Both the position numbers and the translations under genes were made by a program. This document shows, piece after piece, positions 4,813 through 29,544 of a stretch of 33,315 nt of DNA; position 1 is the stretch's first letter, and each line of letters opens with the position of its first letter. The stretch spans positions 1 to 33,315 of the forward strand of contig JAUZFR010000027.1 of the NCBI GenBank assembly GCA_030840335.1, given 5' to 3'. The notes under the pieces are model-generated. The model was not told where the DNA came from and made no database searches. It worked only from the letters and a program-made list of their open reading frames with translations. The stretch comes from Actinomycetota bacterium. GTDB lineage: Bacteria > Actinomycetota > Actinomycetes > Actinomycetales > Microbacteriaceae.

Positions 4813-5373
4813 TCAGCGCGCGCGAATCCCGTCGATCGCCATGCGCAGCACGCGCTCGCGCTGCTCGTCGGTGCGGTACTCGACCCCGATGATGCCAGTG
4901 ATCATGTGGAGCACGTCGTCGACCTGGGCATCGGGGCGAACGACTCCAGCAGACTTGGCGCGCTCCATGAGAGGCGTCCCGGCTCCATACATGACTTCGC
5001 GGCAGGACTGGAACATCGCCGAGTCACGGTTGAGTCCATCGATGAGCGCCCGCTTGGTGTGCGCGTAGGCGACGAAACGGTCGAGCCAGGTCGTCAGAGC
5101 ATCCCACGGTGGCAGCGATGAGACCTCATCGGCGACTCGGGCAAGGTCGTTGATCTCGTCGACATAGACGGCCAGAACAAGATCCTGGCGGGTTGGAAAG
5201 TTGCGGTACAGCGTACCGATTCCGACGCCGGCCTCTCGGGCGATCGCCTCGAGAGACGTGTCGGAGCCCTTGTCGGCAAAGGCATCTCGCGCCGCAGCGA
5301 GAACCGCGTCGTAGTTGCGCCGCGCATCCGCTCGCTGGGGTCGACGAGTCTCGACGGTGGGAACACTCGTCAT
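4813..5373 (-). CDS. TetR/AcrR family repressor of the adjacent MFS gene
   Basis: This 186-aa regulator has an N-terminal helix-turn-helix (SLEAIAREAGVGIGTLYRNF, about residues 40-59) and an all-helical ligand-binding domain of the SbtR-like C-terminal type. The start at 5373 is well placed behind GAGGAG with 5 bases of spacing. It is divergent from the MFS gene with a 174-bp gap that holds two tandem GGAGG-N4-CCTCC palindromes. The natural reading is that it represses the exporter, and perhaps itself, and is released by an exported substrate. The ligand is unknown. The stop lies 66 bp from tadA, which runs in the same direction, so read-through into the Tad operon is possible. Confidence 0.88.
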   Translation of the reverse strand: MTSVPTVETRRPQRADARRNYDAVLAAARDAFADKGSDTSLEAIAREAGVGIGTLYRNFPTRQDLVLAVYVDEINDLARVADEVSSLPPWDALTTWLDRFVAYAHTKRALIDGLNRDSAMFQSCREVMYGAGTPLMERAKSAGVVRPDAQVDDVLHMITGIIGVEYRTDEQRERVLRMAIDGIRAR

Positions 5374-5398
5374 CGGAACTCCTCAAATCGACCTCAAC

Positions 5399-5428
5399 TT
5401 GCAAAGCGGAGGCATACCTCCGTATACT
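5399..5428 (+). promoter_or_regulatory. Sigma-70-type promoter of the MFS gene
   Basis: TTGCAA at 5399-5404 and TATACT at 5423-5428 are separated by 18 bp, a good housekeeping promoter. Transcription would start near 5435, inside the second operator, giving a leader of about 110 nt before the ATG at 5548. The first operator occupies 5407-5422, almost exactly the spacer. Confidence 0.65.
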
Positions 5429-5444
5429 TGGAGGCACCCCTCCA
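5407..5444. promoter_or_regulatory. Two tandem TetR-type operators
   Basis: Two perfect 16-bp palindromes share one architecture: CGGAGG-CATA-CCTCCG at 5407-5422 and TGGAGG-CACC-CCTCCA at 5429-5444, with centres 22 bp apart (about two helical turns). The first fills the -35/-10 spacer and the second starts immediately after the -10. Placement and symmetry strongly suggest the binding sites of the divergent TetR protein; the pairing is inferred from position. Confidence 0.75.
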
Positions 5445-5547
5445 CTTTAGCACTGGACCGCGGATCGTGCGAAACACACACGATTTTCGCGGTTATCCGT
5501 CGCGCAATCGGTGCGTGCGAATTTCTCTGCGCTCGAAAGGAAGCATC

Positions 5548-6966
5548 ATGCCAACCATCACTCGCCGCGCTCCCGCCGTCACGTTCTTCGTGCTCGCGCT
5601 CGGAGGCGCATCCTTCTCTCTGCTGCAGTCGCTGTTGAACCCGGTTCTGCCCACGATCCAGCGCGACCTGCACACCGACCAGAGCACCGTGAGCTGGGTG
5701 CTGATCGCCTGGATCCTCTCCGCCGCGATCGCCACCCCTCTTCTCGGCCGCCTCGGCGACATGATCGGCAAGAAGCGCACCTTTGTGCTCGCCTTGTCTG
5801 CCGTCGTGCTCGGCAGCGTCCTCGCAGCCCTCTCCCCCACCATCGGCGTTCTCATTCTGGCGCGCGTGCTCCAGGGGCTCGGTGGCGCGGTCTTCCCACT
5901 CTCGTTCGGCATCATTCGGGACGAGTTCCCCGGCGAGCGCGTCGCAACGGCAGTCGGCGCCATGTCGGCCGTCATCGCAGTCGGCAGCGGCGTCGGCGTA
6001 GTTCTCGCCGGACCGATCGTCGCAGCGCTCGACTGGCGCTGGCTGTTCTGGATCCCCGCGATCGTCTCGACCATCACCGCCGCCCTCGCCCACTTCATCG
6101 TGCCGGAGTCGCCGGTTCGCCCCGGCGGCCGCATCAACTGGACCGCCGCCACCCTCCTGGCCGGATGGCTCGTCGCCCTTCTGCTCCCGCTGAGCGAAGC
6201 ATCGCAGTGGGGCTGGTCGTCGCCCCTCACCATCTCGCTACTCGTTCTCTCCGCGGTTCTGCTGGCCGCCTGGATCGCCTTCGAAGCGCGATCAAGCAAC
6301 CCAGTGATCGACATGCGGATGATGCGCCGCCCGGCCGTCTGGACCGTCAACCTCGTCGCCCTCTTCTTCGGCGGAACGATGTTCGCGATCTTCGCCTTCC
6401 TGCCGCAGTTCTCCCAGACCCCCACGAGCGCGGGCTATGGATTCGGCGTCAACATCACCGGTGCCGGCCTGCTGATGCTCCCAATGCTCGTCACAATGGC
6501 GATCGGTGGATTCGTGAGCGGCCCGCTATCGAAGCGCATCGGCTTCAAGACACAGCTCGCAGTCGGAGCATCCCTCGTCGCGGTGTCCGCCCTCGCACTC
6601 GCGTTCTTCAACACCGAGGCCTGGCAGGTCGCACTCGAGGCCGGTGTCTTCGGCCTCGGGATCGGTTTCGTCTACTCGTCGATGACCAGCCTCATCGTGC
6701 AGGCTGTGCCATCCAGTCAAACCGGCGCGGCCAGTGGAATGAACGCGAACATCCGTAACATCGGCGGCGCCATCGGAACGGCCGTGATGACCACGATCGT
6801 GACGAGTCATCCGCAGGCGAGCGGACTGCCAACCGCGAGCGCCTACTCGACAGCCTTCCTGGTAATGGGCCTCATCGCCGTTGTCGCGGTCGCCGTGTCT
6901 GCCGCAGTGCCGTCCGCGAACCGGGTTGCCCGTGTTTCGCGCCTCGAACTGGCAACCCAAAGTTAG
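5548..6966 (+). CDS. DHA2-type MFS drug/proton antiporter
   Basis: This 472-aa integral membrane exporter is of the EmrB/QacA type, probably with 14 transmembrane segments judging by length. Motif A GRLGDMIGKKR is at about 67-77. An antiporter motif-C-like Gly-rich run GSGVGVVLAGPIV is at about 146-158, followed by the DWRWLFWIP sequence typical of DHA2 proteins. The start ATG at 5548 follows GAAAGGA with suitable spacing; the frame is open back to 5428 but that stretch is promoter and operator DNA. It probably pumps out a hydrophobic or toxic compound by proton exchange. The substrate cannot be read from sequence. Regulation by the divergent TetR is very likely. Confidence 0.9.
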   Translation: MPTITRRAPAVTFFVLALGGASFSLLQSLLNPVLPTIQRDLHTDQSTVSWVLIAWILSAAIATPLLGRLGDMIGKKRTFVLALSAVVLGSVLAALSPTIGVLILARVLQGLGGAVFPLSFGIIRDEFPGERVATAVGAMSAVIAVGSGVGVVLAGPIVAALDWRWLFWIPAIVSTITAALAHFIVPESPVRPGGRINWTAATLLAGWLVALLLPLSEASQWGWSSPLTISLLVLSAVLLAAWIAFEARSSNPVIDMRMMRRPAVWTVNLVALFFGGTMFAIFAFLPQFSQTPTSAGYGFGVNITGAGLLMLPMLVTMAIGGFVSGPLSKRIGFKTQLAVGASLVAVSALALAFFNTEAWQVALEAGVFGLGIGFVYSSMTSLIVQAVPSSQTGAASGMNANIRNIGGAIGTAVMTTIVTSHPQASGLPTASAYSTAFLVMGLIAVVAVAVSAAVPSANRVARVSRLELATQS

Positions 6967-14693: not shown

Positions 14694-17168
14694 TTACCAG
14701 CCGGCTCCGTAGCACTGGAAGGCCGAGGCGACGCCGAGCCCGCTCGCCGCCGAGGCGAGAGCATCTGCGGGGGCACTACCTGCGGCAAGCAGTGCGTGAG
14801 TCGCGGTCAGCACATCGCGCGCGACGGAGTCGCTGACACTGGCTGGGGCGGCGATGACGCAACGGGCTCCCGCGTTCAGCCAGGCTGGCGACATCCCGAG
14901 AGCTTCCTGTCCCCAGCGCACTGAAGACCTGCCGAGTTCGCAGGCCGAGAGGATGACGAGGCTCGGCACCTGAGAGAGCTGGTCGATGTCATAGCCGTAC
15001 AGCCGGCCATCCGCGAGTTCGATCCCCGAGAACAGGGGATTGTCGGCGGAGTGCCGGCCGTGAGCCGACACGTGCAGCACATCCACTCGCTCTGCCAGCG
15101 CCGAGACGCCCGAGGTGGTAGCCCTGTCTCCTATCAACACATCCCGCGTCAGTTCATCGGTCATTCTCCAGCTGTGAGCTGCGGCGCGAACTTCCTCCTC
15201 GGCGCGTTCGACCCGAGGCCCTGCGGCAAATCCGGGGGCGCCGAGTGCGCTGTGGGATTCTCGCTGCTCCAGCCAGCGGGACGCCGAGAGCGGAATGGTG
15301 AGTGGCCGCCCGGCGAGCGCGGGCAACATCGACCACGGAACACCGGACAGCGCGGCGGGCGGCGTGATGACTATCCGGCCGTCGCCAAGGAACGGTGAAA
15401 CCGGTGCGAGCAGGGCTGACGACAGTCTGCTGAGCCGATCGTCAAGTGTCCCCAGCACCACCGCGTGCATCGCAGGTGTCAGTGCTGCCGCCGCCATATC
15501 GAGATCGGCCGGCATTCCATCGAGGAGGGCTCCAATCGGTGCCCATGTGCCGATGTCGACTATGCGGGCATCCTTTGGTCCGACGACGAGGGCACTGAGG
15601 GTGTCTCCGGTCCAGAGGTAGGCAAGCAGCACCGCACCGCTCGAGTCGAGTTCCTCCTGCACCTCTGTCAGCGAAGCAAGTCTCGCGACGCTCCCTGATC
15701 CCTTGTCTGACCACTGCCGGCGTCGAATCCGATCGCGCAACAGGCCTTCGCGCTGGCCGTCGGCTGATGATGATGCCGGGTCGAGCGCGCGAAGCTGGCG
15801 GAGTTCTGCGAGATCGGCTGCGGCATCCAGCGTGGAAGGCGGGCGAAGCGGCACCGACCGACTGGCCAGGCTCCTCGTGCGCTCCGACCATTCGAAGACG
15901 GTATCCGGCCGACCGGTGGCGAGAGCGGAACGGATGCCGATCGCAACCAGCTGCCGACCGTGCACGACGATTGTGCTGCGCAGGTCGAGGCTTCCGAACG
16001 TCGCAATCCACTCACCGAATTCGTCGAGCCCGGTCCGCACCTGTCGCAGCGCGTCGGCGGGCCGGCGCTTCGCGACGGCGACTTCTGCGCGGATCTCCCG
16101 ATCGAGCAGGCGTGTGGCAATCGGCGCGCGGGCCGATACGCGGGCGCTGCGCAACGAATCGAGAGCTGCAGCAATGTTGCCGCCGCGGAGAGCGATTCGA
16201 GCGATTTGGAGCCGCAGCGGCAGAGCATCACCGACGAGCGTGCGTGCCTCAAGGGCGTCCGCCGTTTCTGCGGCTTCCCGCGCTATCGCAACCCCGTGCC
16301 GACCCTCGGCCACCGCCGCACTGACCGCGACTGCCTCCGCTCGGAGCGCCCACGACTCACTGCCGCGAGAGCGGAACCGGCGCGCCGCGGTTCGCGCCAC
16401 CGTCGTGGCGGCGCGCGGATCTTCGAGCACGAGGATGCGCGCGAGCAACAATTCGGCTTCGGCCTGCGCCTGCCGCAGTCGCCGCGAGCCGTAGATGCGG
16501 GCGACGCTCGCAAGCAGCGCGGCCGCCTCAGTAGTCATTCCCGCAGCCGACAGTACCTCGGCGCGATCCTGATCGCAGATCGCGAGCGCGACCGGCGAAA
16601 GCGACGCAAGCACCGGGCGCGCCTCATCCATCAGGCGAAGCGCACCAATGATGTCTCCCGCGAGAAGCGCGGCATACCCCTGGTTGTGACGAGCCTTCGC
16701 ATACTCGACGGGCTCGTTGCCGCCAAGGAATGCGAGTGCGGCGACATCGAAGTCGGCCTCGGCCTTGGTGACCTCGCCACGCTGCAGGTAAACGTCGCCG
16801 CGATTGAGGCTCGCACGACCAAGTCGGCGGGGATCGGATTCGAGAGCGCTGATTGCGGCCCCGAGCCAGTCGATTGCGGCATCCGTGTCGCCCCGGCGCA
16901 TGGCGATGAGGCCAAGCTGGCTGGTAAGGATCGCGCGGGTGTGCGCAGAGATGCCCGGGGTCGCGAGCGCCGCATTGCACAGGTCGATGCCGTGCTCGGA
17001 GTCGCCCGTTTCCGAATCCAGGTACGCGAGCGTGCCCGCGATCTGGGCGGACAGGTCGGGGTCGCGCGAACGATCGGCGGCCTCGTCGAGCGCTCGTCGA
17101 GCAGCGGCATGGCGCCCCGCGTTACCGTGATCCACGCCGCGTTGATACAGCACAGCGGCTGTCAGCAT
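14694..17168 (-). CDS. TPR-CHAT caspase-like protein
   Basis: This 824-aa protein has an N-terminal array of degenerate tetratricopeptide-like helical repeats (about residues 1-440; for example AIDWLGAAISALESDP and RGEVTKAEADFDVAALAFLG). A linker leads to a C-terminal CHAT domain (about 560-824). The peptidase dyad is visible: His703 in LHVSAHGRHS and Cys743 in VILSACELG, with the GIELADGRLYGYDID segment between them. CHAT (Caspase HetF Associated with TPRs) domains are clan CD cysteine proteases; some are effectors in bacterial conflict systems. No signal peptide or membrane helix is seen, so it is probably cytoplasmic. The start lies 7 bp after the subtilase stop, so they are one operon. 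The protease substrate is unknown; the TPR region may be the sensor. Confidence 0.88.
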   Translation of the reverse strand: MLTAAVLYQRGVDHGNAGRHAAARRALDEAADRSRDPDLSAQIAGTLAYLDSETGDSEHGIDLCNAALATPGISAHTRAILTSQLGLIAMRRGDTDAAIDWLGAAISALESDPRRLGRASLNRGDVYLQRGEVTKAEADFDVAALAFLGGNEPVEYAKARHNQGYAALLAGDIIGALRLMDEARPVLASLSPVALAICDQDRAEVLSAAGMTTEAAALLASVARIYGSRRLRQAQAEAELLLARILVLEDPRAATTVARTAARRFRSRGSESWALRAEAVAVSAAVAEGRHGVAIAREAAETADALEARTLVGDALPLRLQIARIALRGGNIAAALDSLRSARVSARAPIATRLLDREIRAEVAVAKRRPADALRQVRTGLDEFGEWIATFGSLDLRSTIVVHGRQLVAIGIRSALATGRPDTVFEWSERTRSLASRSVPLRPPSTLDAAADLAELRQLRALDPASSSADGQREGLLRDRIRRRQWSDKGSGSVARLASLTEVQEELDSSGAVLLAYLWTGDTLSALVVGPKDARIVDIGTWAPIGALLDGMPADLDMAAAALTPAMHAVVLGTLDDRLSRLSSALLAPVSPFLGDGRIVITPPAALSGVPWSMLPALAGRPLTIPLSASRWLEQRESHSALGAPGFAAGPRVERAEEEVRAAAHSWRMTDELTRDVLIGDRATTSGVSALAERVDVLHVSAHGRHSADNPLFSGIELADGRLYGYDIDQLSQVPSLVILSACELGRSSVRWGQEALGMSPAWLNAGARCVIAAPASVSDSVARDVLTATHALLAAGSAPADALASAASGLGVASAFQCYGAGW

Positions 17169-17175
17169 GGTTCGA

Positions 17176-18810
17176 TTATCGCCGTATGGGCGTCACTTTC
17201 TCCAGAGCCGTCCAGGCGCGGTCGATGGCACCGCGGCGATCCGCGGTCTTGGCTTCGTGTGTGGCGACTGCGTCCAGGACCGCGGCGATCCTGCCCGCGA
17301 CGACGGGAGCGGCGAAGGATGTGCCGCTCCAGACCGCGAATCCGCCGGAGAAGTCGTCGGCGTCGATCGATTCGCGGGTGTGCCCCCACGCATCCGTTCG
17401 CGCCGCCGGCTGCCAGCCGCCCTGAAACCCCGTTGGGATTGTGCTCACGACTGCGGCCCCCAATTCGTAGGTACGCACCCAGAACCCGGTATTGCTGAAG
17501 AGAGCAACGGTTGTTCCATTCGGGTTGAGGGCACCGACGGACACAATCGGCACGGCGTGGGGGTCGAGGGCGATCGGCGCATATCCGTTCGACCACGGAG
17601 CGAACGCGGCCGGGAATGACGGCCTCGCGGTCGAATCGTTGCCCGCTGAGGCGACGACGACGGTGCCGTTACGCCCGAGGGCCGCGAGGATCTCGTACAT
17701 CGTCGGGTCGAACAGGGCGTCCTGCGGCGTCTCGTGGTAGTACCCCATCGACAGGTTGAGCACGTCGAGCGCGAGCCCTCCCTTGCTCCGCGCGGCCAGT
17801 TCGCCGAGGTTGGCGATGCCCGCCAGCGCGGCAACAAGATCCGACTCGACGATCGTTCCATCCGAATCGACGACTCGCCATGCGACGATGTCCGCGTCGG
17901 GGGCGGCCTGATGGACGAGCCCGGCGATGAATGTGCCGTGCCCCGAGACTTCGTCAATCACCCCATCGAGATCGCCGGTCTGGTCCGGATGGACTTCCGG
18001 ATCGCTTGCAGGGTCGTCATAGCCGATCTGTGGGCCTGCAATCAACGACCCGGCGCGCACAACGCCATCGAGCCAGGGGTGCGAGCCGCATCCGGTATCC
18101 AGGATGCCGACGACCGCTCGCCTGCGCCCGCCGCGTTCATGATCGCTCCGTCGATGCGGACGGTGCCCGGCGAATGCGACCGGCTGGAGCCCGCCACCGC
18201 CTGGCGCGCCGTAGGCGTCTTCCGGTCCTGCGCCGTTGGCCGAGGAGAACGGATTCGTGGAGTGGAACGGGTTCGTCGAGTGGAACGGATTGGTTGAGTG
18301 GAATGGATTGGTTGAGTGGAACGGATTTGCGCCAACTCCGCCGACGGTCAGAATGTGCTCGAGTCCGACCCCGTGGAGGTTCGCCACACCGACTTCGCGA
18401 CGCGCGGCACGCAGCAGGCGCCACGCGTCCGGCTCGGGCGAACGGTCGGATCCGGCGATGGTATAGCGACGAACGCCGAGCGTTCCTGTCGCCCACGGGA
18501 TGCGTCGACGCCTGGCGACGCGCGCCTCCTCCGATTCCTGGACGACCACCTCGCCGAACTTCTGGTCGAGTGTGAGGCTCCAGCCGAATCGCTCGGCGAC
18601 GGCGGCGAGCAACTTTTCGTTCGCGTCAACATCGGCGAGCGTGGACAACAGCAGGCGATAGGCGACATAGCTGGTCGGATACGCGGTCACGCCGTCGTCT
18701 TCCTGGTCGTCGGGAACGAGGAGTGTGCCCCGATAGTGAGGAAGGCCGAGGCGGCCGATCCAGCTCGAATCGGCTTCGTTGCCGTCCGAGGTACCGCGAA
18801 TGTCGCTCAT
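17176..18810 (-). CDS. Intracellular S8 subtilase with NPFHST repeats
   Basis: This 544-aa serine peptidase has a complete triad: Asp238 (GILDTGCG), His291 (GHGTFIAG), Ser497 (SGTSFAAP), plus oxyanion Asn391 (ASAGND). About 230 residues precede the catalytic domain. They comprise an alpha/beta region with YPTSYVAYRLLLSTLAD and RFGWSL, a Gly-rich segment (HGVGLEHILTVGGVGA), then four NPFHST hexapeptides and one NPFSSA (162-191). No signal peptide or C-terminal anchor is present, so it is probably cytoplasmic, which is unusual for subtilases. The N-terminal part may be a propeptide and the repeat array a flexible or cleavable linker (inference). The gene is spaced 10 bp after the small protein gene and 7 bp before the CHAT gene. 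Confidence 0.88.
   Translation of the reverse strand: MSDIRGTSDGNEADSSWIGRLGLPHYRGTLLVPDDQEDDGVTAYPTSYVAYRLLLSTLADVDANEKLLAAVAERFGWSLTLDQKFGEVVVQESEEARVARRRRIPWATGTLGVRRYTIAGSDRSPEPDAWRLLRAARREVGVANLHGVGLEHILTVGGVGANPFHSTNPFHSTNPFHSTNPFHSTNPFSSANGAGPEDAYGAPGGGGLQPVAFAGHRPHRRSDHERGGRRRAVVGILDTGCGSHPWLDGVVRAGSLIAGPQIGYDDPASDPEVHPDQTGDLDGVIDEVSGHGTFIAGLVHQAAPDADIVAWRVVDSDGTIVESDLVAALAGIANLGELAARSKGGLALDVLNLSMGYYHETPQDALFDPTMYEILAALGRNGTVVVASAGNDSTARPSFPAAFAPWSNGYAPIALDPHAVPIVSVGALNPNGTTVALFSNTGFWVRTYELGAAVVSTIPTGFQGGWQPAARTDAWGHTRESIDADDFSGGFAVWSGTSFAAPVVAGRIAAVLDAVATHEAKTADRRGAIDRAWTALEKVTPIRR
18238..18327 (-). repeat. 18-bp tandem repeat encoding NPFHST array
   Basis: Five consecutive 18-bp units lie inside the subtilase gene and encode NPFHST four times and NPFSSA once. 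The units differ at synonymous positions (for example AACGGATTGGTTGAG versus AATGGATTGGTTGAG on the plus strand), so the peptide is conserved more strictly than the DNA, which hints at selection on the protein. Confidence 0.9.
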
Positions 18811-26794: not shown

Positions 26795-28366
26795 CTAGTT
26801 TCGCACGCTGAACGCCAGAATTTCCGGCGAGCGTCGATCAAAAATGTGACCGCCCCACAAGATGCCGAGCGCGAGGAAGCCGCCGCCCAGCACTAGCCCG
26901 CTCGCCAGAGCCGCGAGGCCCCAATCGTCGCCGTCGACAACGGCTCGGAAGGCGAAGTAGAACGTCGGAGCAGCCAGGAGGAATGTCGCCGTGAACGAAA
27001 TGGACTGGATGAAGGACGTCGCCGTCCCAGCCGCCTGCGGCTGTGCGAACGGGCTGTCCCCGGGGCGAACCGCCGGATAGGGGAATCGCGCGGACATCAC
27101 GCTCGAGAACCCGAGTGCGCTGAACAGCACGCCGAGCCCAACGCCGAGTAGCGCCGGAAGTACGGATTCGTCGCCGTACAGCGGCGCGCAAATCAGAGCG
27201 CCGACGACGAGCAGGGGAACGCCAACGACCAGCGGCGGGATGACGCGGCCGAGCCGATCAAGTCGCCCGCGCACTCCGGTCGCGATGTGCAACCAGATGG
27301 CGGTGCTGTCGTATGCGACGTCGTTGTGGATCGACCAGCCGAGGAACACAGCAACGATCGGCACGGGCAAAAGGGCGAGTGCGTTCGTCGGAACCCCGGC
27401 AACCATCAGCGGAACCATGAGCAGGAATGGCACGATCGGGATGATGAGCAACGACACGTGGTAGCGCGCATCCCGCATCCAATAGGTGAAGCTTCGCGCC
27501 GCGATCGCGCCGGCCTTGCTGTGCCCGCTGATCGCGAAGAAACCCAGCCCGTGGTAGTTCTTGGCCGCGGGCTGTCGCTGCTGCGTGACCATCATCGTGT
27601 GCACGAGGTACTGCCAAACGAGCCAGAGCAGGCCAACGAATGCCAGCGCGACCAACTCTTTCAGGAGTGCGGATCCGATCAACCCTGCGGCCGCATCCGC
27701 GGGGGCGTCCCAGACGGCGCCGAACGGCGTCCAACCGGCGAAGCTTGCGATCCTGTCGAGCACGGTGATGCCGTCGCGCTGCCAGTCGACGTTGAGCAAG
27801 AGCAGGAAGAGCGGCGCAACGGCCAGCAGCAGGACGATTCCCAGCACGCCGGTGGTGTCCCGCGAACGTCGGCTGGCGAGCAGGAACGCGGCGATCGAGG
27901 TCGCGACTCTCGCGCAGAGCACGCACGTGGCGACGATCACGGGAGCGCCGATCAGCGACAGGATCACCGACAGCGGCGTTCGCGACCACGTGACGATCTG
28001 CGCGAGCGCGATGAAGGCGACGACGAGCGAGGGGATGCTGATCAATGCGGCGATCGCGAGTCCGCCCGCGAGCCGGTCGTTTGCGATGCCGAAGAGAGAG
28101 AATCGCCGCGGGTCCATGACGTCTTCGACCCCGAATGTGAGCGGAACGAGAATGAAGCCGATCACGAGGATGGAGCCGAACACCGTCACCGCGCTGGTGG
28201 CTAGCTGAGTGCTCGCGAGTCGCAGACCGATCAGCGAAGACACCACGGCGATGGAGATTCCAAACCCGTAGAGGAGTCCGATGACGAGGCCAACGAGTTG
28301 CCACGGGCTCCGCTTGAAAGCGTTACCGAGCAATCGAAGCTTCAGTCGGAGAAGCTGTGCAACCAC
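26795..28366 (-). CDS. ABC transporter permease (large exporter type)
   Basis: This 523-aa polytopic membrane protein has roughly 12 hydrophobic segments spread through its length. It is encoded directly after the ATPase gene with a 25-base overlap, so the two form one exporter. The N terminus (VAQLLRLKLRLLGNAFKRSP) is a basic amphipathic lead-in typical of actinobacterial ABC-2-type permeases. Loops such as WSIHNDVAYDSTAIWLHIAT are typical of this class. No extracellular substrate-binding domain or MacB-like domain is seen. The substrate is unknown; drug, peptide or lipid export are possible. Confidence 0.85.
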   Translation of the reverse strand: MVAQLLRLKLRLLGNAFKRSPWQLVGLVIGLLYGFGISIAVVSSLIGLRLASTQLATSAVTVFGSILVIGFILVPLTFGVEDVMDPRRFSLFGIANDRLAGGLAIAALISIPSLVVAFIALAQIVTWSRTPLSVILSLIGAPVIVATCVLCARVATSIAAFLLASRRSRDTTGVLGIVLLLAVAPLFLLLLNVDWQRDGITVLDRIASFAGWTPFGAVWDAPADAAAGLIGSALLKELVALAFVGLLWLVWQYLVHTMMVTQQRQPAAKNYHGLGFFAISGHSKAGAIAARSFTYWMRDARYHVSLLIIPIVPFLLMVPLMVAGVPTNALALLPVPIVAVFLGWSIHNDVAYDSTAIWLHIATGVRGRLDRLGRVIPPLVVGVPLLVVGALICAPLYGDESVLPALLGVGLGVLFSALGFSSVMSARFPYPAVRPGDSPFAQPQAAGTATSFIQSISFTATFLLAAPTFYFAFRAVVDGDDWGLAALASGLVLGGGFLALGILWGGHIFDRRSPEILAFSVRN

Positions 28367-29403
28367 TCCATGCCCTCCGGGTTGGTGCGGCCACCCGCGA
28401 GTTCGACGAAGCGTTCTTCGAGCGTCTTGCCACGGCGGACGGATTCCATGGTTCCGGCATCCAGAATCGCGCCGTTTACGACGACGGCGACGCTGTCACA
28501 GATGCGCTGGATGAGGTCCATGCTGTGGCTGGATAGCACGACAGTGCCGCCGGCGGCCACATAGTTGCGGAGGATTTCGGTGACGTTGGCGGCGGAAACC
28601 GGGTCGACAGACTCGAACGGTTCGTCGAGTACGAGAAGTCGAGGGGAATGGATCATCGCCGCGGCCAGGGCGATCTTCTTGCTCATTCCGGCCGAGTAGT
28701 CGGTGACGAGTCGGTTGAGGGCATCGGTGAATCCGAACGCGGCCGCAAGGTCGGCGCTGCGCGCAAGGGTCGTTTCTCGATCGAGACCGCGCAGGGTTCC
28801 CGAGTAGAACAACAGCTGCGATCCGGTGAGTCGATCGAACAGGCGCAGCCGATCGGGCAGCACTCCCATGGCGCGCTTGGCGGCGACCGGATCTTTCCAG
28901 ACGTCGATGCCGTGCACGCGCACCATGCCGGCGTCCGGCCGCAGGAGTCCTGTGACCATCGACAGCGTCGTGGTCTTGCCCGCGCCATTGGGGCCAACGA
29001 CGCCGAAGAATGAGCCGGCGCTCACCGACAGGTCGATACCGGCGACTGCGGTGGTTTCGCCGAACCGCTTGACCAGTCCCTCGATGACGAGGACGACCTC
29101 GCGAGGCTCGGGTGTGACTGCCTGTTCGGTAACAGCGGTGGTCTTGCTGGGCCGACGCGCCGGAGTCTTGCGCGGCGCAGGCGTCGTCTTCGGCGCGGCC
29201 GTTCTCGACGTACTCGGAGACTTGGTCGCGGTCGTCTTCGCGGCGGGCGCGGCCTTTGCTGCAGGGGTCTTCGCGGCGGGCGCGGCCTTCGCCGAAGTCG
29301 CTCTCGGCGTCGACGCAGTCTTTGCCTTCACTGTTTTGGTCGCCGGAGCCTTACGGGTGCGCGAAGGGCTTTGAGCTGAGGGCGCATCAGGTTCTGGATC
29401 CAC
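28342..29403 (-). CDS. ABC exporter ATPase with Ala/Lys/Pro-rich N-terminal tail
   Basis: This 353-aa ATPase has its nucleotide-binding domain at about 103-340: Walker A GPNGAGKT (137-144), signature YSAGMSKK (236-243), Walker B LLVLDEP (256-262) and the switch His in SSHSMD. Residues about 10-95 are an unusual low-complexity tail of A, K, T, P, S and R resembling histone H1 tails. It contains a 33-bp-period DNA repeat. The start is taken as GTG 29403, 6 bases after a TACGGT -10-like box (leaderless candidate); ATG at 29487 is possible but lacks a ribosome binding site. It pairs with the permease that follows. Confidence 0.85.
   Translation of the reverse strand: MDPEPDAPSAQSPSRTRKAPATKTVKAKTASTPRATSAKAAPAAKTPAAKAAPAAKTTATKSPSTSRTAAPKTTPAPRKTPARRPSKTTAVTEQAVTPEPREVVLVIEGLVKRFGETTAVAGIDLSVSAGSFFGVVGPNGAGKTTTLSMVTGLLRPDAGMVRVHGIDVWKDPVAAKRAMGVLPDRLRLFDRLTGSQLLFYSGTLRGLDRETTLARSADLAAAFGFTDALNRLVTDYSAGMSKKIALAAAMIHSPRLLVLDEPFESVDPVSAANVTEILRNYVAAGGTVVLSSHSMDLIQRICDSVAVVVNGAILDAGTMESVRRGKTLEERFVELAGGRTNPEGMEWLHSFSD
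29234..29289 (-). repeat. 23-bp direct repeat in the ATPase tail
   Basis: An exact 23-bp sequence at 29234-29256 recurs at 29267-29289, a period of 33 bp (11 codons). It encodes AKAAPAAKT-type units twice, so the low-complexity tail probably grew by local duplication. Confidence 0.85.
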
Positions 29404-29544
29404 GCTTAAACCGTACCAAGCTCGCGAGAGGTTCCCTGCGTTAGTATCACGAAACGACAACAACCCACGGATGCCCTGTGTCTTCACAGGTCCGGCCTAT
29501 AGGGTTTTCAGCAGCACAAAGGAGTGTCCAGACGTAATCCCCCA

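What the first reader, a model, noticed from the sequence alone, without database searches (positions are those of the whole stretch)
5399..5444. Two matched TetR operators fitted into a promoter
Seen: palindromes CGGAGGcataCCTCCG and TGGAGGcaccCCTCCA share GGAGG-CA-NN-CCTCC, have centres 22 bp apart, and sit respectively in the 18-bp spacer and directly after the -10 of TTGCAA-N18-TATACT. This looks like a strongly repressed, possibly cooperative switch for the exporter. The operator motif can be used to find other members of the regulon.
Basis: partly seen in the sequence, partly recalled or inferred. Interest (0 to 1): 0.5.

Follow-up and report, generated by a model that had tools for sequence, protein, structure and literature searches.

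The report
Paired repressor sites at exporter promoter
Two matching repressor-binding sites sit in the start region of a drug-exporter gene, and the same arrangement recurs before related gene pairs in many actinobacteria, so this looks like a real but fairly ordinary self-regulated exporter switch of a kind best known from the tetracycline system.

Summary
CGGAGGcataCCTCCG (5407-5422) fills the 18-bp spacer of TTGCAA/TATACT; TGGAGGcaccCCTCCA (5429-5444) follows the -10; centres are 22 bp apart. In 53 of 54 motif-blind TetR orthologues a 13- or 14-bp site lies inside the promoter spacer.

The promoters face each other and site 2 should cover both start points. Best reading: site 1 blocks the exporter promoter, site 2 blocks exporter and tetR, as in Tn10 tetR/tetA.

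Cooperativity is not established: 22 bp recurs in several families, but orthologues also use 25, 26 or 21-44 bp. No further regulon member was found in this 88%-complete genome. Some related TetRs sit beside oxidoreductases instead of an exporter. The paper searches made found no description of this operator. Binding itself is untested.

The parts
5407..5422 (.). Operator 1 (O1), CGGAGGcataCCTCCG, fills the -35/-10 spacer of the exporter promoter
   Evidence: sequence; a site in the promoter spacer in 53 of 54 motif-blind orthologues
5429..5444 (.). Operator 2 (O2), TGGAGGcaccCCTCCA, between the two facing -10 elements, over both predicted start sites
5399..5404 (+). -35 of exporter promoter, TTGCAA
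   Evidence: promoter scan; TTGAA[GC] or TTGCNA near this place in relatives
5423..5428 (+). -10 of exporter promoter, TATACT
   Evidence: promoter scan; TANAGT or TATAAT in relatives
5444..5452 (-). Extended -10 of tetR promoter, TGcTAAAGT (read 5452 to 5444), abutting O2
   Evidence: sequence; positions 37-45 of the logo; reverse -10 after a later site in 45 of 53 motif-blind orthologues
4813..5373 (-). TetR-family repressor gene (TetR_N + SbtR-like C-terminal domain), 186 aa
5548..6966 (+). MFS exporter gene (EmrB-like), 472 aa, start ATG 5548 after AAAGGAAG
   Evidence: start inferred from sequence

Best explanation
The two palindromes are operators (half-site GGAGG, 14-bp core GGAGGN4CCTCC) of the adjacent TetR-family repressor. 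They lie in a control region with two facing promoters: the exporter promoter (TTGCAA-18-TATACT, reading right) and the tetR promoter (extended -10 TGcTAAAGT, reading left). A dimer on O1 occupies the exporter -35/-10 spacer. A dimer on O2 sits between the two -10 elements, over both predicted start sites (about 5435 and 5437), and so should shut off both the exporter and tetR itself. A small molecule, probably a substrate of the exporter, would release the repressor. Shown here: the sequence layout, its conservation, and the tie to this TetR subfamily. Inferred: binding, repression, autoregulation, start sites, ligand.
For: Motif-blind orthologue set: a site in a -35/-10 spacer in 53 of 54 (for the miss, L181; for the 53); a tetR-directed -10 after a later site in 45 of 53; these loose flank patterns fit about 2.3% of positions each. 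Logo of 107 distinct pairs: TTGAA[GC]-17 bp-TANAGT-O2-ACTTTAgCA. The pair also occurs where the neighbour is not the exporter: SDR in L085, F420_oxidored in L138. Recognition helix nearly invariant in orthologues. Five of five Streptomyces TetRs with under 200 bp to a divergent gene repressed it (PMC3511530, passages); here the gap is 174 bp.
Against: No binding, footprint or expression data for this protein; none for a close relative was seen. Start sites are predicted from consensus only. 8 of 53 motif-blind loci show no tetR -10 by my pattern, and L181 has no such site at all. The scan loci are dominated by Streptomyces and some motif-blind loci are identical in the TetR (L211/L212, L172/L173), so counts are not independent. 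In the window the -35 and -10 registers differ by 1-2 bp from Streptomyces. In three Solirubrobacter loci (L087, L098, L114) the TetR has the pair but no MFS match, and in L087 the nearest called gene on that side points towards the pair.
Confidence: 0.8

Rival explanations
1. Cooperative pair: two dimers bind O1 and O2 side by side, and the 22-bp spacing is selected for contact between them (QacR-like or MAB_4384-like two-dimer binding).
For: 22 bp is exact in six Microbacteriaceae genomes and recurs in Streptomycetaceae, Streptosporangiaceae, Solirubrobacteraceae and Nocardiaceae. In Micromonospora a 22-bp pair (selected by the scan for that spacing) has no promoter -10 between the sites. 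Triples at 22+22 occur in 6 of 44 three-site loci. The relative MAB_4384 binds one operator as two dimers (PMC5895659, passages).
Against: 26 bp in 10 and 25 bp in 1 of 22 motif-blind loci with the 14-bp site; 21-44 bp in the 31 loci with the 13-bp site. A DNA survey open to spacings of 14-44 bp peaks at both 22 (10 places) and 26 (12 places, one genus). 22 bp also follows from promoter geometry. Tn10 TetR shows no indication of cooperativity between its two operators (PMC3037858, passages).
Confidence: 0.3
2. Division of labour without overlap: O1 alone controls the exporter, and O2 (with O3 in other lineages) serves only tetR autoregulation; O2 lies near the exporter start merely because the region is compact.
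For: A site in the exporter spacer is the invariant part (53 of 54), while later sites move relative to the exporter promoter but a later site lies beside a tetR -10 in 45 of 53. In 20 of 31 loci with the 13-bp site O2 and O3 keep 17 bp while O1-O2 varies.
Against: In the window and the 22-bp class O2 directly follows the exporter -10 and covers its predicted start, a classic repressing position.
Confidence: 0.25
3. The palindromes are not TetR operators but RNA hairpins or sites of another factor.
For: Both can form short stems; GGAGG is also a ribosome-binding-like word.
Against: They track the TetR subfamily even where the neighbouring gene changes; 53 of 54 motif-blind orthologues keep these very letters with at most one mismatch; positions are promoter core, not near start codons.
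Confidence: 0.04

Closest known systems
Tn10 tetR/tetA control region (tetO1/tetO2)
   Same: Divergent TetR and exporter genes, two operators overlapping the promoters of both, one operator able to shut off both genes (PMC3037858, passages).
   Different: Different operator sequence (recalled; spacing there not checked); here one operator fills the exporter spacer and the tetR -10 faces it from the other side.
SbtR (TTHA0167) of Thermus thermophilus
   Same: C-terminal domain family PF21597 (65.3 bits, cutoff 27); 14-bp palindromic operator, TGACYRNNYRGTCA (PMC4948773, passages).
   Different: Half-site letters differ (GGAGG here); that paper lists 12 potential SbtR targets, here none beyond the local pair was found.
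MAB_4384 of Mycobacterium abscessus (5ovy)
   Same: TetR structural match (rank 5, 28% identity), divergent from an efflux operon, represses it (PMC5895659, passages).
   Different: 27-bp operator with 13-nt degenerate repeats bound by two dimers; MmpS/MmpL pump, not MFS.
SCO7222/SCO7223 of Streptomyces coelicolor
   Same: Divergent TetR with three tandem palindromes of one consensus in the intergenic region, represses its neighbour (PMC3511530, passages).
   Different: Operator TGGAACGNCGTTCCA; neighbour is a monooxygenase. None of the seven footprinted TetRs in the table seen there has a GGAGG operator.
SCO0520 of Streptomyces coelicolor (2q24)
   Same: Nearest solved structure (40% identity, Foldseek rank 1; phmmer E 2e-35).
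   Different: One paper naming SCO0520 appeared in a 5-row listing (PMC4418694) and was not read; its operator is not known to me.

Membership tests
TetR family of transcriptional repressors | N-terminal TetR_N helix-turn-helix domain and all-helical fold | tested here: met
   PF00440 49.8 bits vs cutoff 24; AlphaFold2 mean pLDDT 92.3, eight helices; the best seven Foldseek rows are TetR-family entries
TetR family of transcriptional repressors | Binds a palindromic operator and is released by a ligand | not testable with these tools
   Only sequence conservation of the palindromes was tested
SbtR-like TetR subfamily (PF21597) | TetR_C_43 C-terminal domain | tested here: met
   65.3 bits vs cutoff 27, residues 89-185; TTHA0167 is Foldseek rank 24
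SbtR-like TetR subfamily (PF21597) | 14-bp palindromic operator (feature of SbtR itself, not of the Pfam definition) | tested here: met
   GGAGGN4CCTCC is 14 bp here; but 31 of 54 orthologues carry a 13-bp form GGAGGN3CCTCC, so the length is not fixed
Tn10-type divergent tetR/exporter control region | Divergent regulator and exporter with two operators overlapping the promoters of both genes | tested here: met
   Sequence layout, conservation; promoters are predicted, not mapped
Tn10-type divergent tetR/exporter control region | Repressor represses both genes | not testable with these tools
   Needs reporter or transcript data
Cooperative two-dimer operators (QacR type, recalled) | Fixed spacing between the two dimers across orthologues | tested here: inconclusive
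   22 bp in 11 of 22, 26 in 10, 25 in 1 motif-blind loci with the 14-bp site
DHA2/EmrB exporters (TIGR00711) | Score above the curated cutoff | tested here: not met
   192.4 bits vs cutoff 230.2; MFS_1 is met, 172.2 vs 33.4; so filed as MFS exporter, EmrB-like only

The most novel reading that the evidence does not exclude
An undescribed, actinobacteria-wide repressor-operator module (SbtR-like TetR with GGAGGN3-4CCTCC) whose shared central operator overlaps the start points of two face-to-face promoters, so that repressor gene and effector gene exclude each other when derepressed. The effector slot is interchangeable: MFS exporter, luciferase-like monooxygenase, SDR or F420-type reductase. 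This points to one class of redox-active toxic ligands that is either exported or chemically altered.
Probability: 0.3. Interest if true: 0.5.

Novelty: new member of a known kind. Interest (0 to 1): 0.32.

Why it matters
It gives a sharp, testable operator for a TetR subfamily spread over several actinobacterial families, useful for predicting targets by sequence and for building biosensors. The natural spacing series (22, 25, 26 bp, and 21-44 bp with the 13-bp site) is a ready experiment on whether tandem TetR operators need helical phasing. The partner swap between exporter and oxidoreductases hints at a common ligand class.

Tried and rejected
The loose 3-mismatch motif search in the window found no excess over shuffles. 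A wider regulon was looked for and not found: the extended motif AGYGGAGGN4CCTCC matches perfectly only at these two sites; with one mismatch there are 7 more places (9 matched rows in all against 16 control rows). Of the 5 other exact GGAGGN4CCTCC places, 4 lie inside ORFs called by my script and 1 in a convergent intergenic gap. The genome is 88% complete.

A conserved redox-sensing cysteine in the TetR was considered: Cys124 is present in 89% of 152 distinct orthologue rows, but it is Ala in several of the window's close relatives with the same operators (L009-L011, L192, L194), so no redox mechanism is claimed.

Papers: nine counted searches. Five of them were aimed at this operator or layout; their capped listings showed no paper whose title or abstract start names a GGAGGN4CCTCC TetR operator. 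Passages were read of PMC3511530, PMC4948773, PMC3037858 and PMC5895659; no whole paper was read. QacR features are recalled and seen only as a cited title.

The first ORF pick by length failed in GC-rich loci and was replaced by a codon-position score. The L181 protein sent to Pfam was a transposase fragment, not its partner gene, so the partner of L181 is undetermined.

Rows dropped before counts: the logo used 108 loci (107 distinct), including 3 non-scan loci (L040, L041, L043), and left out 12 (5 without TetR, 4 with more than one overlapping pair, 2 with distant TetR, 1 at a contig edge). One search examined 53 loci; the 54th, L181, has no site and is counted as a miss. Homologues under 51% identity were looked at in part but not counted. 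The tree used 87 chosen rows, not every locus.

Full report
Observation. The reported features are all present at the stated places: TTGCAA 5399-5404, CGGAGGCATACCTCCG 5407-5422, TATACT 5423-5428, TGGAGGCACCCCTCCA 5429-5444; spacer 18 bp; centre spacing 22 bp. The promoter scanner returns only this promoter in 5200-5700, against a shuffle mean of 0.0. In the window's genome (3.09 Mb, 213 contigs, 88% complete) GGAGGN4CCTCC occurs at 7 places, two of them these; the reversed pattern occurs at 4. The gene left of it is a TetR-family repressor (TetR_N, and an SbtR-like C-terminal domain above cutoff); the gene right of it is an MFS transporter, EmrB-like but below the TIGR00711 cutoff, with EfpA and EmrB among the nearest solved structures.

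Conservation, by DNA alone. A family survey for two GGAGGN4CCTCC sites 0-24 bp apart matched 10 of 398 genomes; six of these (including the window's) have exactly 22-bp centre spacing with a TATA-like -10 between the sites; the other four have other spacings and were not examined further. Of these 117, 103 lie between a divergent homologue of this TetR and a homologue of this MFS, 6 have the TetR only, 1 the MFS only, and 7 neither within my limits. Of the 6 with TetR only, three are Solirubrobacter (L087, L098, L114), L138 has another gene there, and in L140 and L165 the pair lies within 200 bp of the end of the fetched stretch. Of the 7, L061 and L085 carry the pair before a short-chain dehydrogenase-like gene, with a homologous TetR 1.3-1.6 kb downstream (Pfam run for L085 only); L050, L073, L101, L106 and L111 have no TetR match.

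Conservation, blind to the motif. TetR orthologues were found by protein: 4 of 6 genomes of the genus at 60% identity or more, the window's included; 21 of 197 class genomes and 40 of 398 family genomes at E 1e-40 or better. They gave 54 loci at 51% identity or more. In 53 of 54 a GGAGGN3-4CCTCC site (at most one mismatch) lies between TTG within 11 bp on its left and TANNNT within 0-3 bp of its right end; the miss is L181. A reverse -10 for tetR follows a later site in 45 of 53. Each flank pattern fits about 2.3% of positions in the same regions. Loci are related, some identical, so these are not independent trials.

Promoter anatomy. In the logo of 107 distinct pairs, with the first GGAGG as positions 1-5, TTGAA[GC] lies at -6 to -1, the spacer is 17 bp, TANAGT lies at 17-22, O2 at 23-36, and ACTTTAgCA at 37-45. 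The last is the reverse complement of TGcTAAAGT, an extended -10 reading towards tetR. The flank AGY is shared by both sites, but TTTAgCA occurs only beside O2, so it is better read as promoter than as operator (inference). In the window the tetR -10 is 5449-5444 (minus) with TG at 5452-5451. Both start sites are predicted inside O2 (about 5435 and 5437; inference). The two promoters therefore face each other and O2 lies between their -10 elements. Of the 65 scan loci with just two sites, 60 show both -35 and -10 around the first and 63 the tetR -10 after the second.

Spacing. Of 22 motif-blind loci with the 14-bp site, 11 have 22 bp, 10 have 26 bp (all one unnamed genus, g127) and 1 has 25 bp. 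Another 31 loci carry a 13-bp site, GGAGGN3CCTCC, with O1-O2 spacing 21-44 bp; in 20 of these 31 a third site lies 17 bp from the second. A DNA survey of 296 class genomes open to spacings of 14-44 bp (26 with a match, 29 places) gave 10 places at 22 bp, 12 at 26 bp (all g127), 1 at 25 bp, 2 at 29 bp (third sites), and four others at 16, 16, 21 and 36 bp. Of the ten at 22 bp, G536 is a perfect 36-bp palindrome and G602 lacks a -10-like word, so eight look like this promoter. For cooperativity: 22 bp recurs across distant families (tree), in Micromonospora without a -10 between the sites, and as 22+22 triples in 6 of 44 three-site loci. Against it: 26 bp puts the sites on a different helical face. 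I judge cooperativity possible, not shown. What is near-invariant is a site in the exporter-side spacer and, in most loci, a later site beside the tetR -10.

Phylogeny and partners. The operator classes cluster on a tree of 87 TetRs (8 changes for 5 labels against a shuffled mean of 41.8), and the window's TetR groups with the six other Microbacteriaceae rows of the 22-bp class (support 95/79). Names of the window's relatives come from the scan (Glaciihabitans sp. and Microbacteriaceae records). In the 26-bp genus no MFS match is found beside the TetR in 10 of 10 loci; the neighbour of L169 is a luciferase-like monooxygenase (PF00296), and the start of what looks like the same gene can be read in 8 of 10. 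L138 (Rhodococcus rhodnii) has an F420-dependent oxidoreductase domain gene, and more distant homologues with other operator letters have aldo/keto reductases (L014, L225), an SDR (L012) or an ApbA-type reductase (L020). This suggests, but does not show, a ligand that can be either exported or chemically altered.

Mechanism. Step 1, TetR dimers bind O1 and O2: inferred from conservation and from the tie to this TetR subfamily. Step 2, O1 occupancy prevents polymerase from using the exporter promoter: inferred from position. Step 3, O2 occupancy blocks both start sites, giving autoregulation: inferred from position and from the tetR -10. Step 4, ligand release: family knowledge. The layout works like Tn10 tetR/tetA, where two operators overlap the promoters of both genes, one operator shuts off both, and no cooperativity is indicated (PMC3037858, passages). 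Streptomyces TetRs with under 200 bp to a divergent gene repressed that gene in all five cases tested (PMC3511530, passages); here the gap is 174 bp.

Regulon. The extended motif AGYGGAGGN4CCTCC matches perfectly only at the two sites; one-mismatch places do not exceed the control. The other exact 14-bp matches are in called ORFs (4) or a convergent gap (1). The genome is incomplete, so a missing target cannot be excluded.

Verdict. A well-conserved TetR-exporter control region, very probably a self-regulated switch: a new member of a known kind, with an operator that the paper searches aimed at it did not turn up.

Noticed in passing
window 14694-17168 (-) and 17176-18810 (-): A subtilase gene (PF00082, E 2.6e-20) lies 7 bp upstream, on the minus strand, of a TPR + CHAT protease-like gene (PF12770, E 3e-25); only weak PADLOC matches (subtilase 6.3e-6, BovA 1.5e-5). 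Possible paired protease module.
   Followed up: partly
window 28342-29487 (-), neighbour 26795-28366 (-): PADLOC mad3 match, E 3.5e-23 (MADS defence candidate), beside a 523-aa ORF with no Pfam or PADLOC match.
   Followed up: partly
L187, L189-L191, L193, L195-L219 promoter regions: Other Microbacteriaceae orthologues use a 13-bp operator GGAGGN3CCTCC; in 20 of the 31 loci of this class a second and third site are locked at 17 bp while the first site is at variable distance.
   Followed up: partly
L225, L226 promoter regions: Distant homologues (L225 beside an aldo/keto reductase by Pfam, L226 not tested) show three GGGGANNCTCCCC-type repeats, suggesting operator letters drift with the TetR.
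   Followed up: no
L061 and L085: The same operator pair lies before an SDR-like gene with the TetR gene further downstream on the same strand in two Streptomyces, a different gene order from the divergent pairs.
   Followed up: partly
L253 (G536:C9:149999-150034): A perfect 36-bp palindrome made of two such 14-bp words around TGACGTCA; context not examined.
   Followed up: no
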